From: Methanobacteriota archaeon
Lineage (GTDB): Archaea; Halobacteriota; Methanosarcinia; Methanosarcinales; Methanoperedenaceae
Length of the DNA: 7,333 bases
Reading direction: 5' to 3'
Assembly (NCBI GenBank): GCA_018899795.1
Contig: JAHIHJ010000260.1
Coordinates: 1 to 7,333, forward strand
A program made the position numbers and the translations under genes. Positions 1-7,333 of this stretch are shown here, piece after piece. Positions within the stretch are counted from its first letter, which is position 1; every line of letters begins with the position of its first letter. The notes under the pieces were generated by a model. That model saw only the letters and a list, made by a program, of their open reading frames with translations, made no database searches and was not told the origin of the DNA.

Positions 1-264
1 AAAGATACCTTTGATGTGCTGCTGCTGCTTGGAGGATTCAGTTTAAAAGAGACCCTTGAAAAATCCTGGCAGGAGTTCAGGTCATTGAAGAAGATCCTCA
101 TGTTGGCTTCTGAAGGGGGTCATGTGGAACTGGATAATGTGAAACTATCTGTTGAGGAGATAGAAAGGATCGAGGGGATATTGAAGAAATATATGGATCA
201 TACTGTGAAGGTGATAAAAGGAGTGCAGGAGGAACAGAATGAGGGCGAGGAGGATGAAGGATGA
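1..264 (+). CDS. Partial hypothetical protein (5' end outside window), C-terminal 87 residues
   Basis: The reading frame is open from base 1 and ends at TGA 262-264, so this is most likely the C-terminal end of a gene starting upstream. A GTG at 16 could in principle be a start, but no ribosome binding site precedes it and the frame reads through it. The visible 87 residues begin with a hydrophobic stretch (DVLLLLGGFSL). They continue as predicted amphipathic helices (KETLEKSWQEF, LSVEEIERIEGILKKYMD) and finish in a very acidic tail (QNEGEEDEG). I see no cysteine motif, catalytic motif or convincing membrane segment, and I do not recognise the family. Its stop codon overlaps the start of the next gene by 4 bases (ATGA), which implies translational coupling and a shared transcript with the membrane-protein genes downstream. 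Function is unknown. Confidence 0.7.
   Translation, partial: KDTFDVLLLLGGFSLKETLEKSWQEFRSLKKILMLASEGGHVELDNVKLSVEEIERIEGILKKYMDHTVKVIKGVQEEQNEGEEDEG
247..253 (+). promoter_or_regulatory. Shine-Dalgarno site of the gene at 261
   Basis: GAGGAGG lies 7 bases before the ATG at 261 and is complementary to the CCUCC anti-Shine-Dalgarno core of archaeal 16S rRNA. It sits inside the coding end of the upstream gene and supports the 261 start together with the ATGA overlap. It is the only clear ribosome binding site in the window; the two downstream genes lack one this strong. Confidence 0.7.
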
Positions 265-2234
265 GGAAGGGGCTGGTTGAAAGGGGAGTAATTGTAATAT
301 TTGTGATTTTAGTGTGTGCCTCTGTATTGATTAATATTGCTGAGGCTAAAACGAAAGGCTCATATGATTATAACGAGAAAAAATTAATCTTTGAAAATGA
401 TAGTTTTAGCAAAAATACGAGTTATATAATCAATATTACTTTACTAGGCTATTCTGGACCACCCTCTAAGACTGATGATGGAAGATTAGAACTTGAGCGA
501 GATGTATTTGATTCTTCCATTGGCATAACAATAAGAGGTGATAATTTTTCTGACGATTTAACTGTCACTCCCCCAAAAAAACCTGCGCCAAAAGCCACCA
601 CTCCCATTTCAAATGAATCCGACAACACAACCCTAGCCCCTGCAACAACTGAACCTCCAAAAGACAAGCCAGTGGATCTCAAGCAACTTCTTATCAATTT
701 GGCTGCGGTCTTATTGGGTCTTGCCGGGGTTATTTTTGCATTATTTAAATTAGGAATCCTCAGATTGAAAAAAGATGAAGAGCCCCGTAGATTAAGTCAG
801 GTTCCTGAACAAACAATAGAAACCAACTATAAATTGATATTAGAATTAGATGACGGCACTGAGAGAATTCCGGACAGGACAATTGAAATCACTGATAAGA
901 ATGGAATTCTCATTGCAAATGGAAAATCTGATATCAACGGAAAATTTAGATTTGAACTGCCGAAAGATACATATATGGTCAATATAAAGGGCGGAGAAAA
1001 TTATGAAGATTATTCTAAAAAGGTAAAGCTGTCAGATGATAATAGGGTTTCATTAACCCTTCTAAAAAAGCAGCATTTACAGATAGAGGTCGTGGATGAA
1101 TCCGGCAAACCGATAAAGGGCATCTCTGTAAGGGTAACTGAATCAGGCGAAGGGATGGATGCGCCGGGAAATCCTGAGACCGACGCCAATGGTATTGCCA
1201 GATTCACGCTTTCCAGAAAAAAGAAATATAAAGCTTCCATTAATGCTATGACGCAGGATTACTCTATTCCCGGGAGTATCGAAATAACTTCTTCAGATAC
1301 TGTCAAGAAGTTCACTCTCAAAAGGAAAGAAGGTATGCTCGAAATAACGGTTACCGAGCAAGGAAAAGGACAGAATTTTGCAGGTATTCCTTTTACTGTT
1401 GTGAAGAAAGGTACTAACAATATATTGGAATTCATTTCAGATAGTAATGGTATGATAAAACAGAAAGTGCTAATCGGGGACTATACCATAAAGATCAAAC
1501 CCGGCGCTTCCCAGCTTTATGACGCATCTGAAAAGCTGGTCAATGTCCCCGAAAATATACTCGTGCCCGTGACGCTTGATCTGCGTTTCAGCTACAAGCC
1601 CAACAATCAAACCATTACTGCCATCAATAAGCATTATGAAAAACTTAACAATAGTTTTAAGGAAGTATCCGCTTACGACAAATGTATCCCGCTATTTTTC
1701 AAGAGCACTGGAGAAAGACCTCTGAAATTGATAGAGAGGATAATCAAAAGACCTGTTGAATTCCTCGGTTCCAAGACAACGCCTGATGAAATAATAAATC
1801 ATATTTTGAGCGCTGAAGAGATCATTTCAGAAGAAATTTCACGAATAATGCGCGAAAAGAGCAACGTGGATTTCTATTATTCCATCCAGAACCTGCCTCA
1901 GGTAGAGGAACTGGCTGTATCTGATTATTCACAGGAAAAATTCAATGAACTGGTTCATGATATTTCCAATTATCACAAGAACCATTTCAGGGAAATAGGC
2001 AACAAACTGCATGACATCGACACTGAACTCACGGACTTGAGCCGGAGCCTTACAATTCAACCAGTCGCTGACCTGTGGAGAACGGCGCAGAAACTTCAGG
2101 AAAATTGCAATAATGAGCCTGATGCAAAGAAAAAAGGAGTGATGTTGTTCATTAACGATAAACTGCTTGATCATGTTAGAGAAATGTACACCAGAGATGA
2201 AGTAAAGGAGCGTCTGAAAGTCAGTATGCTTTGA
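261..2234 (+). CDS. Single-pass membrane protein: sequon-rich ectodomain, three cytoplasmic beta-sandwich domains, shared helical C-terminus
   Basis: 657 residues. Residues 1-29 look like a signal peptide (basic start, hydrophobic core about 9-27, AEA-K cleavage site). The outer part, about 30-140, has six N-X-S/T sequons (N46, 52, 58, 95, 118, 122) and a Pro/Thr-rich stalk. A membrane helix at about 143-167 is followed by RLKKDEEPRR, which puts the rest in the cytoplasm by the positive-inside rule. Three beta-sandwich repeats of the carboxypeptidase-regulatory/CNA-B-like type follow (about 188-268, 271-355, 358-443), each with a turn such as SDINGKF, TDANGIA or SDSNGMI. Residues 448-657 are a predicted helical domain sharing CIP (475-477) and PVADLW (601-606) with the two genes downstream. 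No enzyme motif is visible, so the beta domains are probably structural or for binding. The start is set by the Shine-Dalgarno site and coupling to the upstream gene. Function unknown; an envelope anchor or sensor is inference. Confidence 0.85.
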   Translation: MRKGLVERGVIVIFVILVCASVLINIAEAKTKGSYDYNEKKLIFENDSFSKNTSYIINITLLGYSGPPSKTDDGRLELERDVFDSSIGITIRGDNFSDDLTVTPPKKPAPKATTPISNESDNTTLAPATTEPPKDKPVDLKQLLINLAAVLLGLAGVIFALFKLGILRLKKDEEPRRLSQVPEQTIETNYKLILELDDGTERIPDRTIEITDKNGILIANGKSDINGKFRFELPKDTYMVNIKGGENYEDYSKKVKLSDDNRVSLTLLKKQHLQIEVVDESGKPIKGISVRVTESGEGMDAPGNPETDANGIARFTLSRKKKYKASINAMTQDYSIPGSIEITSSDTVKKFTLKRKEGMLEITVTEQGKGQNFAGIPFTVVKKGTNNILEFISDSNGMIKQKVLIGDYTIKIKPGASQLYDASEKLVNVPENILVPVTLDLRFSYKPNNQTITAINKHYEKLNNSFKEVSAYDKCIPLFFKSTGERPLKLIERIIKRPVEFLGSKTTPDEIINHILSAEEIISEEISRIMREKSNVDFYYSIQNLPQVEELAVSDYSQEKFNELVHDISNYHKNHFREIGNKLHDIDTELTDLSRSLTIQPVADLWRTAQKLQENCNNEPDAKKKGVMLFINDKLLDHVREMYTRDEVKERLKVSML

Positions 2235-2281
2235 AAAGAACAGGGAAAGAAAATAAAATAAACTAAACGAGATGAATAGAT
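2235..2281 (+). promoter_or_regulatory. 47-bp AT-rich intergenic gap, possible weak archaeal promoter
   Basis: This is the largest gap between genes in the window. It contains an AT-rich tract at 2248-2262 (AGAAAATAAAATAAA) whose centre is about 27 bases before the TTG start at 2282. That is the distance expected between a TATA box and the start of a leaderless or very short-leader archaeal transcript. No convincing purine-rich BRE is seen, and the tract could simply be AT-rich spacer within an operon. No terminator-like U-run or hairpin was seen. Confidence 0.25.
2266..2281 (+). repeat. 16-bp translation-initiation-region motif, copy 1
   Basis: AACGAGATGAATAGAT directly precedes the TTG start at 2282. 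It matches AACGAGTATGAATGAT at 3879-3894 with two offsetting single-base gaps. Its ATG (2272) opens only a seven-codon out-of-frame reading. It may be a remnant of the duplication that produced the two genes, or a weak ribosome-recruiting element. Confidence 0.35.
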
Positions 2282-3880
2282 TTGGCTGGCATTGAAGAAA
2301 TTATAGGATTAATTATAGTATTAATTATTATATATATTATTCTTTACCCTATTTATTGGATTACAAATGATGCGAAAAAAAGAGGTAAAAACGGGATCTT
2401 TTGGGGAGTTGCCACTGTTTTTTTCTATGCACTTACCGCAATAATCTATTTGATAGTCAGACCTAAAGGAGACCTTGTCAAATGCCAGTATTGCGGAAAA
2501 GAAAAGCTGGAAACATTACCGCAATGCCCGCATTGTAAGGGCTCTTCCGGTTATAGAATCAATGAAGAAGTCAAACCTAAAATAGTAACCGCAATGAAAA
2601 AAGTGTATGATGAATGCCAGAACTGCGGTGAGATCACTGATGATCTGGTATTTTCTTCAGATGGCAGATTATTATGTCAGAATTGCATCAATGAGGGAAT
2701 TGCAAAAAAAAAACAGGTCGCTACGCCTCAAACAAAGCAAATTGGTCTTCCTTCCTATACCTTAATCGTTGAAGTAAAAAATGTCTTCAATAAAGAACCC
2801 CTGCCCAAAGCCACCGTTTCACTCTGGAAAGACGCAGAACGGCAGGAAAGAATAAGTGATATTGACGGGAAGGTAATTTTCGGCAAAGTGAAAGAAGGAG
2901 TTTATTCATTAATTATTAGCTCTAAAGGATTTGATGAAATAACGCAGGAAGTGAATATAAACAAAAATGATAGATTGATCTTTGAACTTCACGGAAAAGC
3001 CACTTTGAACATTAGCGTTCTTGATGCTATCAACCATGAGGGAATTGCTGATGCTATCATACGATTTGGGGACATGGAAACAATAACCGATGAAAAAGGG
3101 ATTGCGGTCATCGAAGATATTTCGTTCGGAAAATATGATATTGCTGTTACAAAAGAATCTTATTTCCAGGAGTCTGCAACTCATGATATAAAAGATATCC
3201 AGCAGAACATAAAAATATCATTGAATCCCGATATCAAGCTGGAGGAAGAGTACAGGGTTCAGGGTGAAATGCTAAAGAACTCGCTGAATGAATCCATGAA
3301 AAAACTCTCATTAGCATGCGACATGTGCATCCCGGATTATTACAGGGGGATCTGCTATGAATTGATCAAATTGAACGAAGCCATCGCTTCTACTCCGGTT
3401 TATATCTATGCAGACGGGTCATCTGGTAAAATAAATACGCTGTACAGGATGACAGGTCAGATAACCAGAGAACTCGAGAATATACTGACGAACAGTGAAA
3501 ATATCAATGAATTCATAACACTGGCTAACAACAGTTTTAAAACAAATCCGCCAGGAATAACTATCAGCCCATTCGATTATCATGATGCCATACAATCATA
3601 CATGAGCGACACGAATGAATTCTCACGAAAATACAAAGCTCAAATTTTGAATAAACTTCAGGAAACTGATAGACAGATCACAAATAACCTTCAAACTTTC
3701 AATATTAATCCGATAGCCAACCTGTGGAGCGTATCCCATAATATCATTGCGAACGCAAAAAACGAATCCGATGAAGCAGCTTCACTTTTGCTTGCGAACA
3801 TCCTGCTCGATAACACCAGGAAAATGTTCACGTTACCTGAAATTTCAAGGATATTGAGAAAAAAAATCACTTTAACATAA
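2282..3880 (+). CDS. Two-helix membrane protein with two zinc-binding motifs, two beta-sandwich domains and the shared helical C-terminus
   Basis: 532 residues. Two membrane helices (about 5-27 and 40-60) flank a short basic loop (NDAKKRGKNG), an arrangement common in small prokaryotic membrane proteins that carry zinc ribbons. Two four-cysteine motifs follow: C68-x2-C71-x10-C82-x2-C85 and C112-x2-C115-x16-C132-x2-C135, probably two structural zinc sites facing the cytoplasm. Two carboxypeptidase-regulatory-like beta-sandwich domains (about 158-236 and 240-316) align closely with the tail of the next gene: SDIDGK, IFGK, KEGVY, NKNDR and GKATL are identical in both. Residues 320-532 are the predicted helical domain with CDMCIP (346-351), PIANLW (477-482) and an LLLANILLD segment. 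The TTG start is used because an in-frame TGA lies at 2273-2275 and the next methionine is past the membrane helices. No enzyme motif is seen. The basic inter-helix loop makes the topology less certain than for the neighbours. Function unknown. Confidence 0.85.
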   Translation: MAGIEEIIGLIIVLIIIYIILYPIYWITNDAKKRGKNGIFWGVATVFFYALTAIIYLIVRPKGDLVKCQYCGKEKLETLPQCPHCKGSSGYRINEEVKPKIVTAMKKVYDECQNCGEITDDLVFSSDGRLLCQNCINEGIAKKKQVATPQTKQIGLPSYTLIVEVKNVFNKEPLPKATVSLWKDAERQERISDIDGKVIFGKVKEGVYSLIISSKGFDEITQEVNINKNDRLIFELHGKATLNISVLDAINHEGIADAIIRFGDMETITDEKGIAVIEDISFGKYDIAVTKESYFQESATHDIKDIQQNIKISLNPDIKLEEEYRVQGEMLKNSLNESMKKLSLACDMCIPDYYRGICYELIKLNEAIASTPVYIYADGSSGKINTLYRMTGQITRELENILTNSENINEFITLANNSFKTNPPGITISPFDYHDAIQSYMSDTNEFSRKYKAQILNKLQETDRQITNNLQTFNINPIANLWSVSHNIIANAKNESDEAASLLLANILLDNTRKMFTLPEISRILRKKITLT

Positions 3881-3894
3881 CGAGTATGAATGAT
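3879..3894 (+). repeat. 16-bp translation-initiation-region motif, copy 2
   Basis: AACGAGTATGAATGAT spans the end of the preceding stop codon and the ATG at 3890. It is the counterpart of the copy at 2266-2281. An out-of-frame ATG at 3886 opens five codons and overlaps the real start. No strong Shine-Dalgarno site is present at either copy. Confidence 0.35.
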
Positions 3895-6800
3895 AAAATT
3901 TAGATTATTGACCCTGATCATATTGTGTCTGATTATTTCTACAGATACAGGGGGAGCAGTTATTGAGGTCAGGGGCGCCGCTGCAAAAGAAGCAGCTACA
4001 TGGGACGCTTCAAGTTTCGCAGGTTTCTGGTATGATATTGAAACTGATAAGAGTACCGAGTCCCTGGTTGTTCGCGGTTCACTTGGTTATGATCGTACTA
4101 TTCAATCAGGCGATCTGCTGTATTACACTTCGGATGTCGCTGCGCCTTATAGAATATACAGCGCCAGAGAGCTGACCGTGGACGGTCAGACTTCGTATAA
4201 TGTGGTTGGGTGGATGGGTGAAAAGTATGTGGCTGTTAATGGAAAAGCCAATAAACTCTCCAAACTTATCCTTGAGCAGGATAACCAGGACAGCAAGGTG
4301 CTCGCAGTTGGAGAAACATGGGATATGGGAGATGGCTATACCCTTACTGCCAACTCCATTGATGCAAAAGCATCCCCGGGTCAGGTATGGTTTACTTTGA
4401 GCAAGGATGGGGTTAAGAAAGACGATAAAGTTGCTTTGCAGGGTCAGTCATACATTTTCAGGGAAACAAATCTGGCTGGAGCACCAAACGTACCTGTTTT
4501 TGTAACATATATCAATAAAATATTTCCTGGAGCAACCACCGACATGGTTGAACTGAAATATTCCTGGCTGATCTCAAAAAGCATTACATCAATTCAATCC
4601 GGTGATAAATATGGTCTTTTGAAAGTCTCAATGGCGAATGAGAATAATATCATACTGGCGAATGAACAAAGTATAGCGCTTCAAAAAGGCAGTCGGATAG
4701 ATCTGTTCGGAAATATAAAATTATATGTGGCAGACAGCGAACTTTTCATTTACTGTCCTGTCAGGATCGAGGCATCTGACAAATATTCCATAAGGGGTGA
4801 GACGGCCAAAGGTGCAACTTCCTGGAATGCCCGGAATTTTGCCGGGTTCTGGTATGACCTTAACAACGACCAGAGCACTGAAAGCCTGACTATTAGCTCA
4901 ATAAATACTGCCGGGAGATACATTGAAGCCAATGGTCTTACCTATAGAACTTCACCGGTATCTTTGAAATATATGGTCACGGCTCAAAAAAGTATCCCTG
5001 TCAATAATATGAACTATTACTCTGTTGTTGGCTGGAATGGAGACAAGTATCTTGCGATCAATGGAAAAGCAAATAAACTGCTCAGGATAATCCGTGAACT
5101 GGGAACATCTGCCTCGGATAAAAAAACCCTGACAGTTGGAGAAACATGGGATATGGGTGAAGGGTGGACATTGACCGCCAACTCCATTGATGCCAGGGCA
5201 AGCCCGAGACAGGTATGGCTTACATTGAGCAAGGATGGAGTTAAGAAAGACGATAAAGTCCTAACATCAGGTACTGAAGTTGCCAGCCCCTTATACACCT
5301 ATGTTGAGAGAAACCTTGGTGGAGAAACAGATGTTACTGTATTTGCAGTTTATATTGACAGCGTGTTCGCAGGCGCGACAACAGATATGGTGCAGTTAAG
5401 ATTTGCTTTTCTGGTTTCAAATTCTCCCGGCAGCATAAAAGTCGGTGACAGGTTTGGAGTATTCCAGGTAACAACATCAAATGATAACTCCATTGTTTTG
5501 ACCAATAAGGACAGGATCTCACTCTCTCCTGGAAATGTCGTCTTAATGGATAACATGAAATTCAAGGTTGCGAATGATCCATCGAACCTGAGGTTCTATC
5601 CTGTGGTCGAAAAGGATGCTCAGCGCGTATTTTCAATATCAGGCGCTGCTTATTCTAATACCCCATCAATTATTTCATCAACATACACGCCTCAATATAC
5701 ATATAGTACTGCCCAGCCATCAAACAATCAATCGACTGGATATGCTGTAATTCTGGTAATACTTATTATTATTTATTTTATTTACTTTTTCGGGCACAAG
5801 AAAAGCTCTCCGGAAGTTGAGAAAAAAGTCGAGAAAAAGCCAGTAAAGCCCGATAAAAAAGAAACGAAGGTGGACAAAAAGGTGAACCCAGAGAAGGAAT
5901 CGACGCCAAAGGAGATGGAAAATACATATACTCTGATAATGGAATTAAGGAACATATCAGATAAGATCCCTATCAAGAGAGCAACAGTTATCCTTGACCA
6001 TCCTGGGGGCGAAGTGTTCGAACGAACCAGCGACATCGACGGGAAAGCGATCTTTGGGAAACTCAAAGAAGGAGTGTATAGAGCCAGGATTGTTTCAAGA
6101 GGTTTTGAAGAATATTTCCGGGAATTAGATGTAAACAAAAATGACAGAATGATCATTGAACTTCGCGGAAAAGCCACGCTTTGTGTATCGGTGTATGATA
6201 TCGTTAATGGAAGACCTCTTGCCGGGGCGAAGATCAAGATCGGAGATATGGAATTAACGACCGATGAACGGGGGAACTCAGTGATACAGGATATTACCTT
6301 TGGAAGTCATACCCTGTCGGTCAGTAAAGATTCCTATAAAACAGAAGAATTATCACTGGATGTTAACGATATTACATTGAACAGGAAGATAGAATTAAAT
6401 CCTGAAACAAAGTTTGACGATGAATTGACCGTTATTGGGGAGGGGCTCAGACGGTCATTCAATGATGCCATGAAGAAGTTGTCATCTTCATGTGACATGA
6501 GCATCCCGGAATATTACAGGAGCATCTGTAGCGAGATAATAAGGGTAATTGAAACTATTGCTGCTACCCATGCATATGCAGAATCAGATCAGTCGAGGGA
6601 AAATATCTATTCTCTCTATTCTGTGGCTGAGAGGATATGCAAAGAAATGGAATTAATACTCACGAATGAAGAAAATATCAATGAGTACATCAGCATGGAA
6701 TCCAGGGGATATAGAACAACAATAGATGCAAAGATAAATATTGCGGAATATGATCCAATTATCCACCAATTCATGACCGATACAGAGGGATTCACAGGGA

Positions 6801-7039
6801 AAAATGAAAATCATATCCTCAAAAAATTGCAGATCGTGGATCAGGAGATCACGGACAATATTCAGAAATACAATGTATCTCCTGTGGCGAACCTCTGGAA
6901 TATCTCACAAAAAGTGATCAGGACAGATACAAAAGACATTTCGAAACATGCTGCATCGCTGTTATTGGGGAATATGCTACTTGATAAGACTGGTGAGATG
7001 CTCAGGAACGAAGAAATCAGAAAACGGTTAAGAAAATAA
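3890..7039 (+). CDS. S-layer tile protein (two S-layer duplication domains) fused through a membrane helix to a large cytoplasmic tail
   Basis: 1049 residues. The signal peptide is about 1-22. Two S-layer family duplication domains follow (about 25-292 and 299-574), each with FAGFWYD, VVGW, VGETWDMG, SLxxG-type turns and LSKDGVKKDDK; this is the tandem arrangement of Methanosarcinales S-layer tile proteins. A short Ser/Thr/Pro/Tyr-rich linker (575-617) leads to a membrane helix (about 618-635). Known tile proteins of this family end about there. This one continues with a Lys/Glu-rich linker (636-676, HKK first, so cytoplasmic), two beta-sandwich domains (about 679-756 and 760-836) and the helical domain (840-1049) with CDMSIP (868-873), SPVANLW and LLLGNMLLDK. 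The tail is a close paralogue of the preceding gene's C-terminal half. An in-frame TGA at 3887-3889 makes ATG 3890 the first possible start, and the signal peptide agrees. The gap to the upstream gene is 9 bases. The S-layer role is well supported by family; the role of the tail (anchor or signal relay) is inference. Confidence 0.9.
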   Translation: MIKFRLLTLIILCLIISTDTGGAVIEVRGAAAKEAATWDASSFAGFWYDIETDKSTESLVVRGSLGYDRTIQSGDLLYYTSDVAAPYRIYSARELTVDGQTSYNVVGWMGEKYVAVNGKANKLSKLILEQDNQDSKVLAVGETWDMGDGYTLTANSIDAKASPGQVWFTLSKDGVKKDDKVALQGQSYIFRETNLAGAPNVPVFVTYINKIFPGATTDMVELKYSWLISKSITSIQSGDKYGLLKVSMANENNIILANEQSIALQKGSRIDLFGNIKLYVADSELFIYCPVRIEASDKYSIRGETAKGATSWNARNFAGFWYDLNNDQSTESLTISSINTAGRYIEANGLTYRTSPVSLKYMVTAQKSIPVNNMNYYSVVGWNGDKYLAINGKANKLLRIIRELGTSASDKKTLTVGETWDMGEGWTLTANSIDARASPRQVWLTLSKDGVKKDDKVLTSGTEVASPLYTYVERNLGGETDVTVFAVYIDSVFAGATTDMVQLRFAFLVSNSPGSIKVGDRFGVFQVTTSNDNSIVLTNKDRISLSPGNVVLMDNMKFKVANDPSNLRFYPVVEKDAQRVFSISGAAYSNTPSIISSTYTPQYTYSTAQPSNNQSTGYAVILVILIIIYFIYFFGHKKSSPEVEKKVEKKPVKPDKKETKVDKKVNPEKESTPKEMENTYTLIMELRNISDKIPIKRATVILDHPGGEVFERTSDIDGKAIFGKLKEGVYRARIVSRGFEEYFRELDVNKNDRMIIELRGKATLCVSVYDIVNGRPLAGAKIKIGDMELTTDERGNSVIQDITFGSHTLSVSKDSYKTEELSLDVNDITLNRKIELNPETKFDDELTVIGEGLRRSFNDAMKKLSSSCDMSIPEYYRSICSEIIRVIETIAATHAYAESDQSRENIYSLYSVAERICKEMELILTNEENINEYISMESRGYRTTIDAKINIAEYDPIIHQFMTDTEGFTGKNENHILKKLQIVDQEITDNIQKYNVSPVANLWNISQKVIRTDTKDISKHAASLLLGNMLLDKTGEMLRNEEIRKRLRK
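3962..4765 (+). repeat. S-layer duplication domain, unit 1 (coding)
   Basis: First of two tandem units within the S-layer gene, residues about 25-292. It aligns with unit 2 at an offset of 274-276 codons. The best-preserved part is at 4305-4431, around VGETWDMG to KKDDK; identity there is visible at DNA level, including a 25-base identical run starting at 4305. Confidence 0.8.
4784..5608 (+). repeat. S-layer duplication domain, unit 2 (coding)
   Basis: Second tandem unit, residues about 299-573. The block matching unit 1 at DNA level lies at 5133-5258. The outer portions of the unit are much more diverged at both DNA and protein level, for example in the loop after the KKDDK motif. Confidence 0.8.
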
Positions 7040-7040
7040 T

Positions 7041-7333
7041 CTATCCGGTCTTTGCGCCGCAACCTGTACAGAAAATCCCGGTCTTTAATGTTTTTCCGCA
7101 GACATGACATAACTTTGGTTTTGTTTCATTGGTTGATGGCTTCTGATACTTCTCCTTCAGTTCATCTTCGATCTGTTTCTGCTGTTCCTTTGTCAGATTA
7201 CAGGTGATCCTTATGACGTCCAGCATCCCTCTTTCGCTATCTGTGATGTTCTTACCTTTGCTGAAGATCGTTGCAGCCTGCTTTCGATAACTCTCAAAAT
7301 CAGCAATTATATTATCAGTATTCCCAAATATCT
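7041..7333 (-). CDS. Partial zinc-ribbon protein (N-terminus outside window), C-terminal 96 residues
   Basis: On the minus strand the frame is open from the window edge to TAG at 7043-7041, so the gene continues beyond 7333. An internal ATG at 7226 could give a 61-residue protein, but the open frame and protein-like sequence upstream (DFESYRKQAATIF, KGKNITDSERGM) make a longer gene more likely. The visible part is a charged, probably helical segment (LTKEQQKQIEDELKEKYQK), then a Pro/Thr-rich linker, then a C-terminal zinc ribbon CHVC-x9-CTGC (codons at 7107-7059). The cysteine pattern is typical of small archaeal zinc ribbons that mediate protein contacts or stabilise a fold; no specific family is recognised. 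It converges on the S-layer gene with one base between the stop codons. The presence of zinc-binding motifs also in the gene at 2282 hints at a related context but proves nothing. Confidence 0.75.
   Translation of the reverse strand, partial: IFGNTDNIIADFESYRKQAATIFSKGKNITDSERGMLDVIRITCNLTKEQQKQIEDELKEKYQKPSTNETKPKLCHVCGKTLKTGIFCTGCGAKTG

What the first reader, a model, noticed from the sequence alone, without database searches (positions are those of the whole stretch)
261..7039. Three adjacent genes share a cytoplasmic tail but carry three different membrane/surface heads
The C-terminal halves of the genes at 261, 2282 and 3890 have the same order: two or three beta-sandwich domains, then a helical domain with a (C/S)IP motif and a P(V/I)A(N/D)LW motif near the end. 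The N-terminal heads are unrelated: a sequon-rich ectodomain, a membrane hairpin with two zinc-binding motifs, and a full S-layer tile. This looks like head swapping on a common module and suggests that the three proteins meet, or bind one partner, on the inner face of the membrane. I know of no named system with this layout. The domain architecture is read from the sequence; the joint function is inference.
Basis: partly seen in the sequence, partly recalled or inferred. Interest (0 to 1): 0.72.

Follow-up and report, generated by a model that had tools for sequence, protein, structure and literature searches.

The report
Tubulin-linked membrane adaptors with swapped heads
Three neighbouring genes of a methane-eating archaeon make membrane proteins with the same inner tail but different outer parts, and the tail nearly always travels with an uncharacterised tubulin-like gene, so the proteins may tie an inner filament to the membrane and, in one case, to the cell's outer protein coat.

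Summary
The three genes end in one homologous helical domain of about 210 residues (profile E 2e-16 to 4e-81; shuffles 0.14-0.82) behind carboxypeptidase-regulatory-like beta-sandwiches; the heads are unrelated. No Pfam or NCBIfam family covers the helical domain over cut-off.

The window starts inside a tubulin/FtsZ-superfamily gene (T2), whose stop overlaps the first tail gene. A tail gene directly follows T2 in 17 of 25 T2 loci read: all 17 outside one group of genomes, 0 of 8 inside it, where both persist unlinked. Among 392 genomes of the phylum the same 10 carry T2 and a strong tail match; among 237 of the class, 16 of 18 tail carriers have T2.

Most likely the tail is a cytoplasmic adaptor for this tubulin-like system, and heads are exchanged to choose what is held: an ectodomain, a zinc-ribbon hairpin or, in Methanoperedens, an S-layer tile pair. 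Tail-filament binding and S-layer coupling are inference. The tubulins may overlap the published 'Halo.Tub' group.

The parts
1..264 (+). C-terminal end of tubulin/FtsZ-like T2 (87 aa, ends in an acidic stretch); its stop overlaps the ATG of the next gene by 4 nt
   Evidence: T2 profile hit E 1e-24; matches the C-terminus of P0054/P0059, whose GTPase domain hits PF00091 over cut-off
261..2234 (+). Adaptor 1 (P1): N-terminal hydrophobic segment, sequon-rich ectodomain, TM at 678-770, beta-sandwiches 816-1601, helical tail 1602-2231
   Evidence: ectodomain 22% vs tail 71% mean identity in 17 homologues
2282..3880 (+). Adaptor 2 (P2): hydrophobic hairpin 2282-2464, two Cys4 motifs 2483-2536 and 2615-2686, beta-sandwiches 2753-3223, helical tail 3239-3877
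3890..7039 (+). Adaptor 3 (P3): signal-like segment, two S-layer tiles 3974-4759 and 4781-5617, TM 5726-5806, Lys/Pro/Glu-rich linker, beta-sandwiches 5915-6406, helical tail 6407-7036
   Evidence: PF07752 E 2.6e-116; MA0829 structure 3u2g E 1.9e-33
1602..2231 (+). helical tail domain, copy A
3239..3877 (+). helical tail domain, copy B (modelled with a few residues before it, 222 aa, pLDDT 90.6)
6407..7036 (+). helical tail domain, copy C
7041..7331 (-). C-terminal part of the antisense beta-propeller/Ig-like protein (YRKQA-type segment and a Cys4 motif)
   Evidence: WD profile E 1e-10; full-length relatives P0057 and P0060

Best explanation
The three genes encode membrane adaptors of an archaeal tubulin/FtsZ-superfamily system. 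Shown: they are encoded directly behind a tubulin-like gene (T2), share a homologous helical domain, and the helical domain and T2 are inherited together across the phylum. Inferred: the tail lies in the cytoplasm; T1 and T2 form a GTP-dependent filament or ring under the membrane; the tails bind it, or bind the roughly 700-residue protein encoded beside it; the beta-sandwiches act as spacers. Each head sets what is attached: a variable glycosylated ectodomain, a zinc-ribbon hairpin, or an S-layer tile pair that could sit in the S-layer lattice and couple it mechanically to the filament.
For: Window base 1-264 is the end of T2 and overlaps gene 1 by 4 nt; the same overlap is seen in L001 and L002. 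T2 is directly followed by a tail gene in 17 of 17 loci read outside the second group: window, L001, L002, L091, L092, L140-L148, L179-L181; of these the 14 fetched by T2 alone (L091, L092, L140-L148, L179-L181) were not chosen for the tail. Phylum sample of 392 genomes: T2 in 10, tail at E<1e-10 in the same 10 (Fisher p 5e-20). Class, 237 genomes: T2 in 16, tail in 18, both in 16 (p 5e-23). T1 and T2 pass the PF00091 cut-off in 4 of 4 proteins; T4 GGGTGxG in 21 of 21 T2 and 12 of 13 T1; T7 DxxD in 20 of 21 T2 and 12 of 13 T1. The tail is far better conserved than the ectodomain in P1, 71% vs 22%. P3 of the window has 410 aa after its TM; 13 other S-layer ORFs with a TM have 2-38 aa. P0027 fuses the tail to a relative of the C-terminal part of the neighbouring propeller protein.
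Against: No direct contact evidence exists; no complex was modelled. In the second group T2 and the tail pair lie apart (0 of 8 T2 stretches read), so linkage over all T2 loci read is 17 of 25. Two tail carriers, G071 and G073, had no T2 hit (completeness not told). L001 lacks the S-layer gene in its cluster. An S-layer head on this tail was seen only in the window, L002 and the 11 gene 3 homologues. Fisher values treat related genomes as independent. The genome scans scored only a few first-look candidates per genome (up to 5, 7, 4 and 7), so misses are possible. The E<1e-10 cut for the tail was chosen after seeing the list; 3 further genomes had partial hits at E 7e-5 to 8e-4. The tail fold had no clear PDB match (best Foldseek E 0.45). 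The cytoplasmic side rests on charge and sequon reading.
Confidence: 0.6

Rival explanations
1. The tails belong to the same membrane complex as the tubulin-like proteins but bind another member, such as the roughly 700-residue P0055-type protein or the beta-propeller protein, or bind each other; the tubulins act elsewhere in the complex.
For: A P0055-type gene lies between T1 and T2 in 12 of 12 stretches where T1 and T2 were both found in one cluster (L001, L002, L091, L092, L140-L147), and P0055 itself carries a CarboxypepD_reg domain. P0027 fuses the tail with a relative of the propeller protein's C-terminal part.
Against: In the second group T2 persists with the tail, and no P0055-type or propeller hit was seen in the 16 stretches read; the rest of those genomes was not searched for them.
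Confidence: 0.25
2. A membrane-remodelling or vesicle-forming machine, of the kind proposed for FtsZl1 clusters, in which the heads select envelope regions rather than transmit force.
For: Several membrane proteins around divergent FtsZ-like genes, as in Makarova and Koonin 2010.
Against: No vWA domain among the Pfam families shown for 9 cluster proteins (lists capped at 25 for 2 of the 9); Tubulin_2 is below cut-off or absent.
Confidence: 0.2
3. Plain tandem duplication with divergence and operon hitch-hiking: the three proteins are surface proteins with no functional tie to the tubulin-like genes.
For: Genes 2 and 3 are close paralogues; beta-sandwich repeats are common in surface proteins (general knowledge).
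Against: Tail and T2 co-occur in unlinked loci in the second group and in the same 10 genomes across the phylum sample.
Confidence: 0.08
4. An anti-phage defence or plasmid-partition module (TubZ/PhuZ-like).
For: Five clusters are on haloarchaeal plasmids.
Against: No PADLOC hit at E<=0.01 in 6 proteins; five clusters are on contigs of 2.8-3.1 Mb; no T2 in the phage collection.
Confidence: 0.05

Closest known systems
'Halo.Tub' tubulin-related paralogues of Halobacterota (PMC9871819; sections 7 and 8 and passages read)
   Same: Divergent FtsZ/tubulin paralogues in Halobacterota, several copies in quasi-tandem, with neighbours of unknown function, many with coiled coils; possibly the same tubulin genes.
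   Different: The parts read describe no shared tail domain, membrane adaptors, head swapping or S-layer fusion. I could not compare sequences (figures not held, supplements not opened).
FtsZl1 system (Makarova and Koonin 2010, PMC2875224; parts 1-2 of 5 read)
   Same: Divergent FtsZ-like protein in a gene cluster rich in membrane proteins.
   Different: FtsZl1 proteins mostly have a coiled-coil extension and vWA, GTPase or OmpA neighbours, and their T6-H7 elements were not recognisable. The T1/T2 read in full are 379-475 aa, keep the T7 acids, and no vWA was seen among neighbours scanned.
SepF as FtsZ membrane anchor in archaea (PMC8178401; passages read)
   Same: A cytoplasmic domain tying an FtsZ-family filament to the membrane.
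   Different: The tail proteins have no SepF hit and the tail is read as the inner end of a membrane protein with a head.
Methanosarcina-type S-layer proteins, MA0829/DUF1608 (PMC3361143, passages read; PDB 3u2g)
   Same: Signal, tandem DUF1608 tiles, linker, TM.
   Different: P3 continues after the TM with about 410 residues of linker, beta-sandwiches and helical tail.

Membership tests
FtsZ/tubulin superfamily (T1, T2) | GTPase domain PF00091 | tested here: met
   4 of 4 proteins over the 33-bit cut-off (44.9-53 bits)
FtsZ/tubulin superfamily (T1, T2) | T4 loop GGGTGxG | tested here: met
   21 of 21 T2 (20 GGGTGNG, L148 GGGTGCG), 12 of 13 T1; L118 has GGITGPG
FtsZ/tubulin superfamily (T1, T2) | T7 loop acids (DxxD) | tested here: met
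   20 of 21 T2 (L148 has ExxD), 12 of 13 T1 (L118 has SxxE); placed by reading, since MAFFT did not align this loop to FtsZ, and the usual T7 Asn is absent
FtsZ/tubulin superfamily (T1, T2) | GTP-dependent polymerisation | not testable with these tools
   needs biochemistry
FtsZl1 (Makarova and Koonin) | Tubulin_2 PF13809 match over cut-off | tested here: not met
   26.3 and 25.9 vs 27 bits for the two T1, just short; no hit for the two T2
FtsZl1 (Makarova and Koonin) | vWA gene in the cluster (most predicted operons) | tested here: inconclusive
   no vWA among the families shown for 9 cluster proteins, lists capped for 2; haloarchaeal flanks not all scanned
Halo.Tub group | sequence membership in the published group | not tested
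   text describes a similar context; sequences not held
Methanosarcina-type S-layer protein (P3 head) | tandem PF07752 tiles with N-terminal signal-like segment and TM | tested here: met
   12 of 12 aligned P3-type proteins span both tiles
Methanosarcina-type S-layer protein (P3 head) | TM close to the C-terminus | tested here: not met
   409 aa after the TM in L002 P3; 2-38 aa in 13 other complete tile ORFs with a TM, 4 more had no TM found (18 in all)
SepF anchor | Pfam SepF match in the tail proteins | tested here: not met
   not among the families listed at E<=1 for P0001-P0003
CarboxypepD_reg-like beta-sandwich | PF13620 over cut-off | tested here: met
   46, 41.5, 47.5 bits vs 32.3

The most novel reading that the evidence does not exclude
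An archaeal counterpart of eukaryotic cortex-to-matrix linkage: a two-tubulin filament inside the membrane is tied through interchangeable transmembrane adaptors to the surface, including a dedicated S-layer subunit that carries force or position between cytoskeleton and S-layer lattice.
Probability: 0.3. Interest if true: 0.92.

Novelty: new variant of a known kind. Interest (0 to 1): 0.74.

Why it matters
How archaeal S-layers are positioned and coupled to the cell interior is, to my knowledge, open, and most archaeal tubulin-like proteins have no known membrane partner. If right, this gives a candidate partner domain, an experimental host (Halobacterium salinarum R1 carries the cluster on plasmid PHS2) and a natural set of head swaps. 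It would also show a modular filament-membrane adaptor family spread over Methanoperedens, a second group of genomes in the same class, and haloarchaea.

Tried and rejected

Fourth tail: the 711-aa P0055 looked as if it might carry the tail; profile comparison did not support it (E 0.035, 0.18, 0.26). The haloarchaeal H0b protein matches the first half of the tail weakly (10 sequences, prob 74%, E 2.9e-5; 5 shuffles 0.21-0.65); kept as a lead only.

Mobile or viral origin: no relatives in viral contigs for three queries, no T2 in phages. Defence: no PADLOC hit in 6 proteins. A first genome scan with P0002 alone found nothing; the alignment scan found two loci. In the paralogue tree, 4 of 13 other FtsZ-like loci gave no usable ORF and were left out; T1 and T2 grouped together on long branches, which may be long-branch attraction, and MAFFT misaligned their T7 loops against FtsZ. 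The T7 reading rests on the T1 and T2 family alignments. An iterated set of component profiles blurred T0 with T1 and let P0055's profile pick up other beta-sandwich proteins; gene order is taken from the non-iterated profiles.
Full report
1. The observation. The three ORFs are at the stated places. Genes 2 and 3 share 48% identity over 372 residues; gene 1 is more distant (23%, E 4e-19 to gene 2). I cut out the helical part alone and compared family profiles: A-B E 1.8e-16 over 192 columns, A-C 2.7e-18, B-C 4.1e-81; five column shuffles of B against A gave E 0.14-0.82. The tails are homologous. In front of them all three carry CarboxypepD_reg-type beta-sandwiches over Pfam's cut-off. The helical domain has no Pfam or NCBIfam family over cut-off. 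Modelled alone with 46 sequences it is a compact helical domain, pLDDT 90.6, pTM 0.88, without a clear PDB match.

2. Heads. Gene 1 has an N-terminal hydrophobic segment, six sequons, then a TM followed by a basic stretch. Gene 2 has two hydrophobic helices and two Cys4 motifs. Gene 3 has two PF07752 tiles (E 2.6e-116), related to MA0829 of known structure (E 1.9e-33). In gene 1 homologues the ectodomain has drifted to 22% mean identity while the helical tail stays at 71% (17 of 21 sequences; two of the four left out are short, one is P0027, one lacks the signal segment). In gene 2 the values are 52% and 70% (13 of 18; five with other, missing or incomplete heads left out). In gene 3 tiles and tail are alike (60-62% and 65%, 12 of 12). 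As a control I took the 30 best S-layer loci of 8 genomes plus L002, L005, L111 and L116 and kept ORFs with a stop inside the stretch and distinct ends: 18. One, gene 3 of L002, has 409 residues after its TM; 13 have 2-38; 4 show no TM. A paper on Methanosarcina S-layer proteins describes the usual form as tandem tiles, a 60-residue linker and a C-terminal TM (PMC3361143, passages).

3. Head swapping. Within the gene 2 family, P0016, P0019 and P0021 have heads with four hydrophobic stretches and no Cys4 pair. P0027 puts the gene 1 beta-sandwiches and tail into a protein without a predicted TM, behind a relative of the C-terminal part of the propeller protein (66% identity to gene 1 residues 219-655; propeller part 39%, E 5e-40). 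A second group of genomes has a PKD-repeat head and a HEAT-repeat head on the tail. The zinc hairpin itself is matched at E<1e-17, without a tail match, in five other genomes of the family; I read two of them.

4. The setting. Relatives found in named genomes are two Candidatus Methanoperedens loci. Reading them showed that the window starts inside a tubulin/FtsZ-like gene, T2. The upstream order is T1 (second tubulin-like gene), a 126-aa protein, a 396-412-aa protein and a 711-713-aa protein, each with hydrophobic segments by reading, the last with a CarboxypepD_reg domain, then T2; L001 has one extra ORF before T2. T1 and T2 exceed the PF00091 cut-off. The T2 stop overlaps the gene 1 start by 4 nt in window, L001 and L002. 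T2 has relatives at 40-44% identity on five haloarchaeal plasmids (one of them has a second place that I did not read). Two, Halobacterium and Natrinema, were tested gene by gene and have the same order, ending in an antisense propeller gene. For the three Halobaculum plasmids only T2 and the tail gene were tested; the other genes match by annotated order and size, and in Halobaculum sp. SYNS20 the first two FtsZ-like genes appear split.

5. Linkage and co-occurrence. With profiles for each component I read 30 stretches, and three plasmids besides. T2 is directly followed by a tail gene in 17 of 25 T2 loci: all 17 outside the second group (window, L001, L002, L091, L092, L140-L148, L179-L181; the first three were not chosen by T2), and 0 of 8 in that group, where the tail pair sits elsewhere (8 stretches read). 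T1, P0055-type and T2 genes stand together in 12 of these (L001, L002, L091, L092, L140-L147); L148 showed no T1. In a phylum sample of 392 genomes, 10 have T2 (E<=1e-20) and the same 10 have the tail at E<1e-10; three more have partial tail hits at E 7e-5 to 8e-4. Among 237 genomes of the class, 18 have the tail (E<1e-20), 16 have T2, all 16 among the 18; 40 further genomes matched that profile at about E 1e-10 or weaker, outside its helical part. Fisher p is 5e-20 and 5e-23, but related genomes are not independent and few candidates per genome were scored, so these are descriptive. In the family of L001, 2 of 34 genomes carry the full tail and the same 2 carry T2; 31 others match T2 only at about E 1e-6 to 1e-3, as ordinary FtsZ-family genes would.

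6. Are T1 and T2 likely to be active? T4 is GGGTGxG in 21 of 21 T2 and 12 of 13 T1; DxxD of T7 is kept in 20 of 21 and 12 of 13. The usual T7 asparagine is absent. So nucleotide binding and hydrolysis across a subunit interface are plausible; polymerisation is not shown.

7. Mechanism. Most likely the tails are cytoplasmic adaptor domains for a T1/T2 filament or the complex around it, and the heads decide what is attached. Steps shown: homology of tails, linkage to T2, co-inheritance, conserved tail with variable head. Steps inferred: tail inside the cell, T1/T2 polymerise, tail binds them, S-layer tiles of gene 3 join the lattice. Gene 3 is missing from the L001 cluster, and an S-layer head on this tail was seen only in the window, L002 and the 11 gene 3 homologues, so S-layer coupling is an add-on, not the core.

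8. What is known. A phylogenetic study reports a divergent 'Halo.Tub' group in Halobacterota with quasi-tandem copies and neighbours of unknown function (PMC9871819, sections 7 and 8); T0/T1/T2 may be these. Makarova and Koonin's FtsZl1 system is similar in kind but differs in domain content (PMC2875224, parts 1-2). Borg papers mention tubulin-like genes of Borgs, and one reports expression of S-layer and tubulin/FtsZ genes in Methanoperedens (PMC11208441, PMC12660748, PMC9879509, PMC9605863; passages), not tied to this locus. A paper on differentiating haloarchaea (PMC10067837, passages) speaks of CetZ loss and MreB-like proteins, not of this cluster, in what I saw. In my eight paper searches no listed title or passage that I saw describes this cluster or tail; two searches found no paper. 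Most subscription papers are not covered, and bioRxiv is not held as a library.

Noticed in passing
window 1-264; L001 6584-7936; L002 6457-7827: T2 of Methanoperedens ends in a strongly acidic tail, reminiscent of eukaryotic tubulin tails; the two haloarchaeal plasmid T2 aligned with it are shorter and lack it.
   Followed up: no
L010, L013: The two-helix plus Cys4 head of gene 2 occurs in other genomes of the family behind secreted ectodomains and without the tail; positive charge in the hairpin loop leaves its topology unclear.
   Followed up: partly
P0027 (1059 aa protein): A protein without a predicted TM fuses a relative of the propeller protein's C-terminal region with the gene 1 beta-sandwiches and tail; listed for 4 contigs.
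   Followed up: partly
L091 1369-4359, L092 101-3895: Haloarchaeal clusters have a third FtsZ-like gene (T0) and a protein that in L092 has a PH domain and a weak zinc-ribbon match (L091 has no Pfam hit), ending in a possible half-tail.
   Followed up: partly
G001:C48:24006-24482 (L055): Another FtsZ/CetZ-like gene with a hydrophobic C-terminal segment lies on the same contig as the cluster; G002 has a close relative (L056).
   Followed up: no
L002 14778-15967; L001 5714-6574: Probable transposase genes between gene 3 and the propeller gene in L002, and an extra ORF between the 711-aa gene and T2 in L001 (by reading only).
   Followed up: no
L179-L181 right end: Behind the antisense gene in the three Halobaculum plasmids lies a gene annotated as an AAA-family or ATP-binding protein.
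   Followed up: no
L118 17284-18327; L096 13428-14540: T1-like genes in the second group: one about 6.6 kb from T2 (E 5e-52, altered T4 loop), one weak hit near a tail pair (E 7e-7).
   Followed up: no
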